Assembly: GCF_030817495.1 (NCBI RefSeq)
Contig: NZ_JAUSZK010000001.1
Location: 5,373,001-5,437,000 of the forward strand
Direction of reading: 5' to 3'
DNA: 64,000 bases
Source: Streptomyces sp. V3I7
GTDB taxonomy: Bacteria; Actinomycetota; Actinomycetes; Streptomycetales; Streptomycetaceae
The notes below the pieces were generated by a model that was not told the origin of the DNA, ran no database searches, and worked only from the letters and a program-made list of their open reading frames with translations. The position numbers were made by a program, and so were the translations under genes. Position 1 is the first letter of the stretch. Each line of letters opens with the position of its first letter. This document shows, piece by piece, positions 4,414 through 5,436 of the stretch.

Positions 4414-5436
4414 TCAGTACTGCTCGGTCTCCACGAAACCGGCGTCGGCGTCATCATCGGCCCCGAAGGCGTCTGCGGCGGCGGTCGGGTCGAATCCGGG
4501 CGGGCTGTCCTTGAGGGCCAGGCCCATGCCGGCCAGCTTCGCCTTGACCTCGTCGATGGACTTCGCACCGAAGTTGCGGATGTCCAGCAGGTCGGCCTCG
4601 GAGCGCGCCAGGAGCTCACCCACCATGTGGACGCCCTCACGCTTGAGGCAGTTGTACGACCGAACGGTGAGCTCGAGCTCCTCGATCGGCAGCGCGAGGT
4701 CGGCGGCCAGGGCGGCGTCCGTGGGGGACGGGCCCATGTCGATGCCCTCGGCGTCGATGTTCAGCTCACGGGCGAGACCGAACAGCTCGACCAGGGTCTT
4801 ACCGGCCGACGCCATGGCGTCACGCGGACGCATGGCCTGCTTGGTCTCGACGTCGACGATCAGCTTGTCGAAGTCGGTGCGCTGCTCGACACGCGTGGCC
4901 TCGACCTTGTACGTGACCTTCAGCACCGGCGAGTAGATCGAGTCGACCGGCACACGGCCGATCTCCTGGCCCAGCTGCTTGTTCTGCACGGCGGAGACGT
5001 AGCCGCGACCGCGCTCGACGGTCAGCTCCATCTCCAGCTTGCCCTTGCCGTTGAGCGTGGCGAGGACGAGGTCGGGGTTGTGCACCTCGACACCGGCCGG
5101 GGGCGCGATGTCGGCGGCGGTGACCAGACCCGGACCCTGCTTGCGCAGGTACATCACGACCGGCTCGTCGTGCTCCGAGGAGACGACCAGCTGCTTGATG
5201 TTGAGGATCAGGTCGGTGACGTCCTCCTTGACGCCCGGCACGGTGGTGAACTCATGCAGGACACCGTCGATGCGGATGCTGGTGACAGCAGCGCCGGGGA
5301 TCGACGACAGGAGGGTACGGCGCAGGGAGTTGCCGAGGGTGTAGCCGAAGCCCGGCTCCAGCGGCTCGATCACGAACCGTGAGCGGAACTCGTCGACGAC
5401 CTCTTCGGTGAGTGAGGGACGCTGAGCGATCAGCAC
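4414..5436 (-). CDS. rpoA: DNA-directed RNA polymerase subunit alpha, stand-alone copy
   Basis: A 340-residue full-length alpha subunit. The N-terminal assembly domain includes FVIEPLEPGFGYTLGNSLRR and LLSSIPGAAVTSIRIDGVLH. The linker is followed by a C-terminal domain with SYNCLKREGVHMVGELLARS, LLDIRNFGAKSIDEVK and the acidic tail ending TEQY. The start is the GTG at 5434-5436, with GGAGG 9 nt upstream; this start gives the family's usual length in Streptomyces. Alpha dimerises to seed polymerase assembly and its CTD contacts UP elements and activators. The context is odd: rpoA normally lies among rpsM-rpsK-rpsD and rplQ, but here it is monocistronic, flanked by a GNAT gene and a CarD-like gene. 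It is therefore probably a second copy; I cannot see whether the ribosomal-operon copy exists. Confidence 0.96.
   Translation of the reverse strand: MLIAQRPSLTEEVVDEFRSRFVIEPLEPGFGYTLGNSLRRTLLSSIPGAAVTSIRIDGVLHEFTTVPGVKEDVTDLILNIKQLVVSSEHDEPVVMYLRKQGPGLVTAADIAPPAGVEVHNPDLVLATLNGKGKLEMELTVERGRGYVSAVQNKQLGQEIGRVPVDSIYSPVLKVTYKVEATRVEQRTDFDKLIVDVETKQAMRPRDAMASAGKTLVELFGLARELNIDAEGIDMGPSPTDAALAADLALPIEELELTVRSYNCLKREGVHMVGELLARSEADLLDIRNFGAKSIDEVKAKLAGMGLALKDSPPGFDPTAAADAFGADDDADAGFVETEQY

What the first reader, a model, noticed from the sequence alone, without database searches (positions are those of the whole stretch)
4414..5436. Isolated second-copy-like rpoA outside the ribosomal-protein cluster
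A complete alpha subunit with intact NTD and CTD stands alone, without rpsK/rpsD or rplQ beside it. Sequence shows its own GGAGG RBS and a strong terminator. Established: rpoA is normally embedded between ribosomal genes. Inference: this is a paralogue that could build an alternative polymerase or buffer alpha dosage; its CTD carries text (GVHMVGELLARS) that I recall as slightly different from the usual GIHSVGEL-type Streptomyces sequence.
Basis: partly seen in the sequence, partly recalled or inferred. Interest (0 to 1): 0.8.

Follow-up and report, generated by a model that had tools for sequence, protein, structure and literature searches.

The report
Mobile second RNA-polymerase alpha gene, Streptomyces
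This soil bacterium carries a second gene for the alpha part of its RNA polymerase, from an old, wandering gene lineage whose middle is often overwritten to match the host's normal copy while its control region and tail end stay distinct.

Summary
The window's 340-aa alpha gene lies on the minus strand (5436..4414, GTG start). The genome has a second rpoA, between rpsK and rplQ, 1.4 Mb away. They differ at 33 of 1023 nt and four residues: I162V, I269V, S271M, V276L.

It is not a private duplication: 52 of 296 sampled same-genus genomes hold an intact extra copy, and 21 Streptomyces plasmid records carry rpoA. GTG starts 49 of 58 copies; GGAGG precedes 55 of 58 against 3 of 78 canonical. Neighbours vary. 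Across 51 genomes paralogue-type sites dominate leader and tail, whereas in the NTD core 96-99% of informative sites match the host's own canonical copy; the CTD is intermediate. Reading: a mobile second alpha lineage, its middle homogenised by gene conversion. dN/dS indicates a working protein. One rpoB-type and one rpoC-type gene were found, so alpha-2 should join the ordinary polymerase; that, and any changed promoter choice, is inference. A 2011 paper noted two rpoA in S. avermitilis, calling that duplication fairly recent.

The parts
4414..5436 (-). second rpoA (rpoA2), 340 aa, GTG start
4732..5436 (-). alpha NTD coding part (codons 1-235); one residue (I162V) differs from the canonical copy
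4703..4950 (-). 248-nt stretch (gene nt 487-734) identical to the canonical rpoA of the same genome: candidate gene-conversion tract
   Evidence: run test for this pair p = 0.042; population evidence
4504..4704 (-). alpha CTD coding part (codons 245-311) with I269V, S271M, V276L and a cluster of differences at 4606-4702
4414..4503 (-). acidic C-terminal tail, codon 312 to stop; only synonymous differences here, but very variable in other second copies
5446..5450 (-). GGAGG ribosome-binding site, typical of the second copies (55 of 58; 3 of 78 canonical)
5458..5477 (-). leader hairpin GGCGTC-ACATAGCG-GGCGCC; its canonical counterpart shows covariation
5491..5496 (-). TACCCT, possible -10 element in a stretch seen in many leaders of both copies (inference; the promoter scan found none)
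5437..5622 (-). leader of the second copy; similarity to CarD-like loci of 10 other same-genus genomes ends at about 5621-5623, so gene plus leader is a block that they lack at this place
5640..5861 (+). divergent 73-aa CarD/TRCF-RID-like gene (below Pfam cut-off); immediate neighbour of 10 of 58 second copies
4255..4291 (.). stable hairpin between rpoA2 and the convergent GNAT gene (possible two-way terminator, no T-run); the 91-bp stretch around it has a second copy in the genome

Best explanation
The gene is a functional second RNA-polymerase alpha subunit from an old, dispersed rpoA2 lineage of Streptomyces and a few relatives. It has reached many chromosomal sites and plasmids as a gene with about 100-200 nt of its own leader. 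After arrival, ectopic recombination with the resident rpoA overwrites the assembly (NTD) part in many hosts and, less often, parts of the CTD, while leader, last part of the CTD and acidic tail stay paralogue-specific. Alpha-2 would then join the single beta/beta' core, alone or as a mixed alpha-1/alpha-2 dimer, and give part of the polymerase pool a variant CTD and tail and a separately regulated alpha supply. Shown by sequence: two genes, shared leader, dispersal, mosaic pattern, purifying selection. Inferred: how it moves, expression, co-assembly, and a regulatory effect through CTD and tail.
For: Two copies in one genome. Intact extra copies in 52 of 296 sampled genomes and rpoA on 21 Streptomyces plasmid records. 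GTG start in 49 of 58 and GGAGG before the start in 55 of 58 second copies, against 0 and 3 of 78 canonical ones (the canonical set was picked with ATG as one criterion, but no full-length rpsK-linked copy has another start). Leader tree: 56 of 58 second copies on one side with 2 of 78 canonical copies. P/C label changes: 4 in the leader, 10 in alignment columns 736-end, 51 in columns 361-735, where 34 of 55 second copies pair exclusively with their own canonical gene. Quartets over 51 genomes: own-type sites 96-99% of (own + paralogue-type) in columns 301-720 (gene nt 301-699), 32-45% in columns 901-1080, 7% in the leader (907 against 12747); own/cross ratio 25-106 against 1.1-2.3. Named-strain quartet: paralogue-type sites 18 in the leader, 2 in nt 1-24, 0 in nt 25-742, 5 in nt 743-960, 8 in nt 961-1030. 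dN/dS among second copies 0.05-0.09 over residues 1-305. R259, N262 and K292 unchanged in 58 of 58. One rpoB-type and one rpoC-type match in the genome.
Against: For the window's own pair the run test gives only p = 0.042, and other-genome pairs reach p <= 0.01 in 16 of 139 controls against 32 of 55 own pairs. Some second copies show no such run (G280, G299, G269, G223, G304). The CTD is not cleanly spared: own-type sites still make up 60-86% in columns 721-900 (gene nt 700-879), and 8 of 55 second copies pair with their own gene in columns 736-960. The CTD changes are mild (I>V, V>L, E>D, L>M) and leave the DNA- and SARP-contact residues looked at intact, so altered specificity is unproven; S271M itself is found in 1 of 58. 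No fixed boundary or constant recombinase was found. No expression data were available. Raised dN/dS in the second copies (0.088 against 0.001 over residues 229-305) also fits relaxed selection.
Confidence: 0.66

Rival explanations
1. Redundant passenger: a working but interchangeable alpha copy that spreads with plasmids and chromosome arms and at most raises alpha dosage, with no regulatory specialisation.
For: CTD changes are conservative and contact residues are kept; patchy presence (52 of 296); one copy with an inner TAG (G258) and a fragment (G250); varied neighbours; dN/dS higher than in the canonical gene; part of the CTD is homogenised too.
Against: The same leader and CTD substitutions recur across species (I269V in 46 of 58, V276L in 28 of 58, 0 of 78 canonical), and dN/dS stays far below 1.
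Confidence: 0.26
2. Independent, recent rpoA duplication in each species, as a 2011 paper reads the S. avermitilis case ('fairly recent').
For: Very high identity between the copies of one genome (33 of 1023 nt differ here).
Against: Second copies share start codon, ribosome-binding site, leader and tail-end sites with each other rather than with their own canonical gene.
Confidence: 0.03
3. Spare alpha kept as protection against agents that attack the alpha subunit (phage enzymes that modify the CTD, or unknown inhibitors).
For: Presence on plasmids; recurrent differences lie mostly in CTD and tail.
Against: R259, the counterpart of E. coli R265 (target of T4 enzymes, recalled), is unchanged in 58 of 58; no phage record matched carries a Streptomyces-like alpha (20 records, best 60.5% over a fragment); no steady neighbour that would suggest defence.
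Confidence: 0.05

Closest known systems
Francisella rpoA1/rpoA2 (PMC3294249; outline, abstract and passages seen)
   Same: Two non-identical alpha genes in one genome, one outside the ribosomal operon.
   Different: There the NTDs diverged into a heterodimer and both copies accelerated; here the two NTDs differ by one residue, are made alike by recombination in many genomes, and the canonical CTD is almost invariant.
Second rpoA of Streptomyces avermitilis MA-4680 (named in PMC3294249, passages; sequence not fetched here)
   Same: Second rpoA outside the ribosomal operon in the same genus; probably the same lineage (inference).
   Different: That paper calls it a fairly recent duplication; the leader and quartet data here point to an old lineage made to look young by gene conversion.
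Chloroflexus rpoA1/rpoA2 (PMC3294249, passages)
   Same: Old rpoA paralogues without drastic changes in dimer or beta/beta' regions.
   Different: No mobility or NTD-limited homogenisation is described in the passages seen.
tufA/tufB-type pairs under gene conversion (recalled, no call)
   Same: Duplicated core gene kept alike by gene conversion.
   Different: Here conversion fades towards the 3' end and stops at the leader, and one partner is dispersed over many sites and plasmids.
Canonical S. coelicolor RNAP alpha, PDB 7vpd/7x75 (organism from PMC10936776, passages)
   Same: 340-aa alpha of the same family, 725 bits.
   Different: Carries I162, I269, S271, V276; the window copy has V, V, M, L.

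Membership tests
Bacterial RNA-polymerase alpha subunit | NTD (RNA_pol_L plus RNA_pol_A_bac) and CTD domains complete | tested here: met
   All three Pfam models over cut-off
Bacterial RNA-polymerase alpha subunit | CTD DNA-contact residues (R259, N262, C263, G290, K292, S293, E296; roles recalled from the E. coli 265 determinant) kept | tested here: met
   58 of 58 second copies, the window's included
Bacterial RNA-polymerase alpha subunit | Incorporated into core enzyme | not testable with these tools
   Needs protein purification
Francisella-type split alpha (obligate heterodimer) | Diverged, complementary NTDs | tested here: not met
   One NTD residue differs in this genome; columns 301-720 homogenised in many genomes
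Francisella-type split alpha (obligate heterodimer) | Both copies evolve faster | tested here: not met
   Canonical dN/dS 0.001 against 0.088 in second copies over residues 229-305
Paralogues under gene conversion | Internal tract grouping by genome while the flanks group by paralogue | tested here: met
   for this genome alone only p = 0.042
Transposon or integron cassette cargo | Own recombinase or constant ends | tested here: not met
   No gene family beside more than 4 of 58 copies except the CarD-like gene (immediate in 10); shared flanks of varying length
Alternative RNA polymerase with its own core | Second rpoB and rpoC | tested here: not met
   One match each for PF04997 and PF00562 in G000

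The most novel reading that the evidence does not exclude
rpoA2 is a mobile transcription modifier: plasmids and chromosome arms bring their own alpha whose variant CTD and tail favour their promoters (for example those driven by SARP antibiotic activators, which touch the CTD region where recurrent changes lie), while gene conversion keeps the NTD fitted to each new host's polymerase.
Probability: 0.2. Interest if true: 0.85.

Novelty: new variant of a known kind. Interest (0 to 1): 0.62.

Why it matters
A core polymerase subunit is usually treated as a single-copy marker. Here about one in six sampled Streptomyces genomes (52 of 296) holds an intact second alpha from a dispersed lineage, and conversion hides its age, so identity alone suggests a recent duplication. 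It also seems to break draft assemblies in the shared stretch (for example G417, both contigs ending at codon 164). If alpha-2 is built into RNA polymerase, it offers a natural system for asking what a variant alpha CTD does to promoter choice and antibiotic gene control.

Tried and rejected
Assembly artefact and simple relocation: rejected. Recent private duplication: rejected by the leader tree and quartets. Separate polymerase core: not supported in this genome. Phage origin: no support. Fixed mobile-element ends: not found. A nearest-relative comparison by flanks and the nearest-sequence check of L057 gave no clear direction of conversion and are not used for it. The hairpin shuffle script was faulty (greedy pattern, one loop length per position) and is not used; and the pair count stand instead. 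In one search the second copies gave a poor register (6 of 58 without a loop match), so covariation is claimed for the canonical leader alone. A loose pattern for the GTCTAC leader core also matched 41 of 78 canonical leaders (48 of 58 second copies) and is not used; GGAGG and the tree are. Chromosome-end bias is weak (33 copies, 14 with relative distance below 0.25, KS p = 0.014) and takes contig ends as chromosome ends.

Coordinates: searches use columns of one codon alignment. One search shows a 7-residue insertion in it after residue 128, so columns beyond 405 are gene nt plus 21; the labels 'NTD 121-235', 'linker+CTD 236-312' and 'tail' printed really cover residues 121-228, 229-305 and 306-340.

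Rows dropped before counts: of 67 of 296 genomes with two or more matches, 15 with weak, partial, split or interrupted extra matches were not counted as intact, leaving 52. The three copies of G161 have no full canonical partner and are left out of own-pair tests (55 of 58). The canonical set of 78 takes ATG-starting 340-aa copies with rpsK in the locus, plus four without rpsK added by hand (L186, L216, L220, L222; all four show an S4-like end upstream) and one of 339 aa (L233). The pair count used 14 of the 16 distinct hairpins. dN/dS between genomes rests on 500 sampled pairs per class. Papers: PMC3294249 (outline, abstract, passages) and PMC10936776 (passages) were opened; the rest were seen only in listings. 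'Not in print' rests on six searches of one open-licence library.

Full report
Observation. The gene is real: 340 aa on the minus strand, 5436 to 4414, GTG start, GGAGG site, three Pfam alpha domains. The window's genome (6.55 Mb, 2 contigs) has two matches: this one and C1:3997998-3999017, the latter with rpsK upstream and rplQ downstream. They differ at 33 of 1023 nt and at I162V, I269V, S271M and V276L, besides the start codon. The differences are clustered: 248 nt (487-734) are identical, while nt 735-831 and 963-1005 hold 23 of the 33. Outside the gene the pairwise alignment extends only about 42 nt upstream.

How common. In 296 genomes of the genus (completeness 95 or more, drawn evenly), 67 have two or more matches. 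A second search of 58 of these, for the other nine, and extraction of the genes leave 52 genomes with at least one intact extra copy, 58 copies in all (5 genomes carry more than one); the other 15 are split at contig ends, fragmentary, weak or interrupted. That the genus is Streptomyces is inferred: one member, G180, has the same two places as the genome of locus L052, a named Streptomyces. A family-wide pattern for the second-copy start region matched 50 of 394 genomes; by my reading of the listing, matches with GTG lie in 34 of 250 same-genus genomes and 2 of 144 of other genera, while matches with ATG also come from canonical leaders. The pattern misses ATG-type second copies. The 80 loci from named genomes are all rpsK/rplQ-linked; that list was cut at the best 80 of 546. 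Among 72,556 plasmid records, 21 Streptomyces records match at 90% or more (18 at 95-99%, 3 at 90-95%). Of these I fetched 10 regions: by eye all 10 leaders carry a GTCTAC..CGTCA core, 9 genes start with ATG and 1 with GTG; one lies about 8 kb from the end of a linear 130-kb plasmid, two genes from a terminal protein gene.

One lineage. 49 of 58 second copies start with GTG and 55 of 58 have GGAGG in the last 25 nt before the start, against 0 and 3 of 78 canonical copies (ATG was among the picking criteria of the canonical set, but no full-length rpsK-linked copy starts otherwise). The last 60-70 nt of leader are alike among most second copies and differ from the canonical leader. In a tree of 100-nt leaders, 56 of 58 second copies fall on one side with 2 of 78 canonical ones; the two second copies on the other side (G253, G271) have a canonical-like leader end, and the two canonical ones (G092, G031) have a GGAGG leader end like that of other genera. 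Genes next door vary: no family recurs at more than 4 loci except a divergent CarD-like gene, adjacent to 10 of 58. Its homology in 10 same-genus loci without rpoA2 beside it (10 of 19 strong matches were compared) stops about 18 nt before it, at window 5622.

Gene conversion. (Columns of the codon alignment: beyond 405 subtract 21 for gene nt.) Label changes on trees: 4 (leader), 10 (columns 736-end), 16 (736-960), 25 (1-360), 51 (361-735); second copies forming a clade with their own canonical gene alone: 0, 4, 8, 13 and 34 of 55. Own-pair differences average 2.4 and 3.6 in columns 481-600 and 601-735, against 7.3 and 8.6 to other canonicals, but 10.4 against 10.3 in the last segment. In the quartet of two named strains (genomes of L057 and L052), paralogue-type sites number 18 in the leader, 2 in nt 1-24, 0 in nt 25-742, 5 in nt 743-960 and 8 in nt 961-1030 (2 of them past the stop codon); own-type sites number 5, all in nt 66-648; cross-type sites number 2 (nt 909, 915); many sites are single-sequence changes. 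Over all pairs of 51 genomes, own-type sites make up 36% in columns 1-60, 71-95% in the windows from 61 to 300, 96-99% in 301-720, 60-86% in 721-900 and 32-45% in 901-1080, and 907 against 12747 in the leader; the chance class (cross) is 25-106 times rarer than own in 301-720 and about as frequent in the last two windows. So the CTD (gene nt 733-933) is intermediate, and the sharpest contrast is between the NTD core and the leader and tail. A run test gives p <= 0.01 in 32 of 55 own pairs and in 16 of 139 other-genome controls; for the window's own pair p = 0.042. Some second copies show no such run.

Function. dN/dS among second copies is 0.09, 0.05, 0.09 and 0.29 over residues 1-120, 121-228, 229-305 and 306-340; among canonical copies 0.045, 0.019, 0.001 and 0.034 (ranges corrected). 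So the second copies are constrained, but less so than the canonical gene. Recurrent differences (canonical 0 of 78): I269V 46, V276L 28, A307G 28, M304L 20, H89Q 20, A248V 16, E255D 14, L284M 12 of 58. R259, R266, R287 and K292, which a cryo-EM paper places at the SARP-alpha CTD interface together with helix 2 and the loops before and after it (PMC10936776, passages), are unchanged in 58 of 58; positions 269, 271 and 276 lie in that loop and helix by comparison with E. coli numbering (recalled). The genome has one rpoC-type and one rpoB-type match, so alpha-2 would have to use the common core. Expression and assembly were not testable.

Known before. PMC3294249 (outline, abstract, passages) describes the Francisella heterodimer and lists two rpoA genes in three Chloroflexus species, S. 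avermitilis, Psychromonas ingrahamii and Leptospira borgpetersenii, calling the S. avermitilis case fairly recent. Six searches of one library listed no paper that I could recognise as being on a dispersed rpoA2 lineage or on gene conversion of rpoA in Streptomyces; that library lacks most subscription journals. I therefore rate it a new variant of a known kind.

Noticed in passing
leader of canonical rpoA, e.g. L002:1458-1479: A 7-bp hairpin with an AAATAG(C/T)G-type loop just before the ribosome-binding site: all 7 pairs standard in 16 distinct variants from 78 canonical leaders; official count on 14 of the 16: 98 of 98 cells paired, 12 cells changed on both sides, 0 of 500 shuffles as high. 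No Rfam match there at E <= 5 in 4 loci. Possible undescribed cis-regulatory RNA of rpoA, or a DNA operator.
   Followed up: partly
L002:2610-2666, L228:1483-1539, L083:2663-2719: Rfam RF03132 (L17 ribosomal protein leader) lies after canonical rpoA in the 3 canonical loci scanned; the fourth locus, around the window's rpoA2, has none.
   Followed up: no
window 5640-5861: 73-aa protein with a weak CarD/TRCF RNA-polymerase-interacting domain (below cut-off), divergent from rpoA2 here and in 9 other loci; 19 of 25 same-genus genomes, own included, match it at E < 1e-18.
   Followed up: partly
window 4240-4330: 91-bp stretch with a long hairpin has a second copy (91% over 67 nt) at G000 C1:3252911; pieces also lie near CarD-like loci L247 (twice) and L250.
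   Followed up: partly
L186, L216, L220, L222 (canonical rpoA of G071, G092, G210, G194): Canonical rpoA preceded by the end of an S4-like gene (identified by recall of the S4 C-terminus) instead of rpsK.
   Followed up: no
L286, L287, L288 (G342, other genus of the family): Three more divergent rpoA-like genes (86-90% identity), two with GTGCCTAC or similar leaders, in one genome.
   Followed up: no
L143, L144 (G270): Two second copies with identical flanks of at least 4 kb, about 609 kb from each end of one chromosome: likely inside terminal inverted repeats.
   Followed up: partly
L057 against L202 (canonical rpoA): Near relatives by flanks (0.7% apart, 2 of 300 nt downstream) differ by 19 nt within the first 240 nt of canonical rpoA, as if that part had been replaced; donor not identified; ungapped upstream comparison 55 of 359.
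   Followed up: partly
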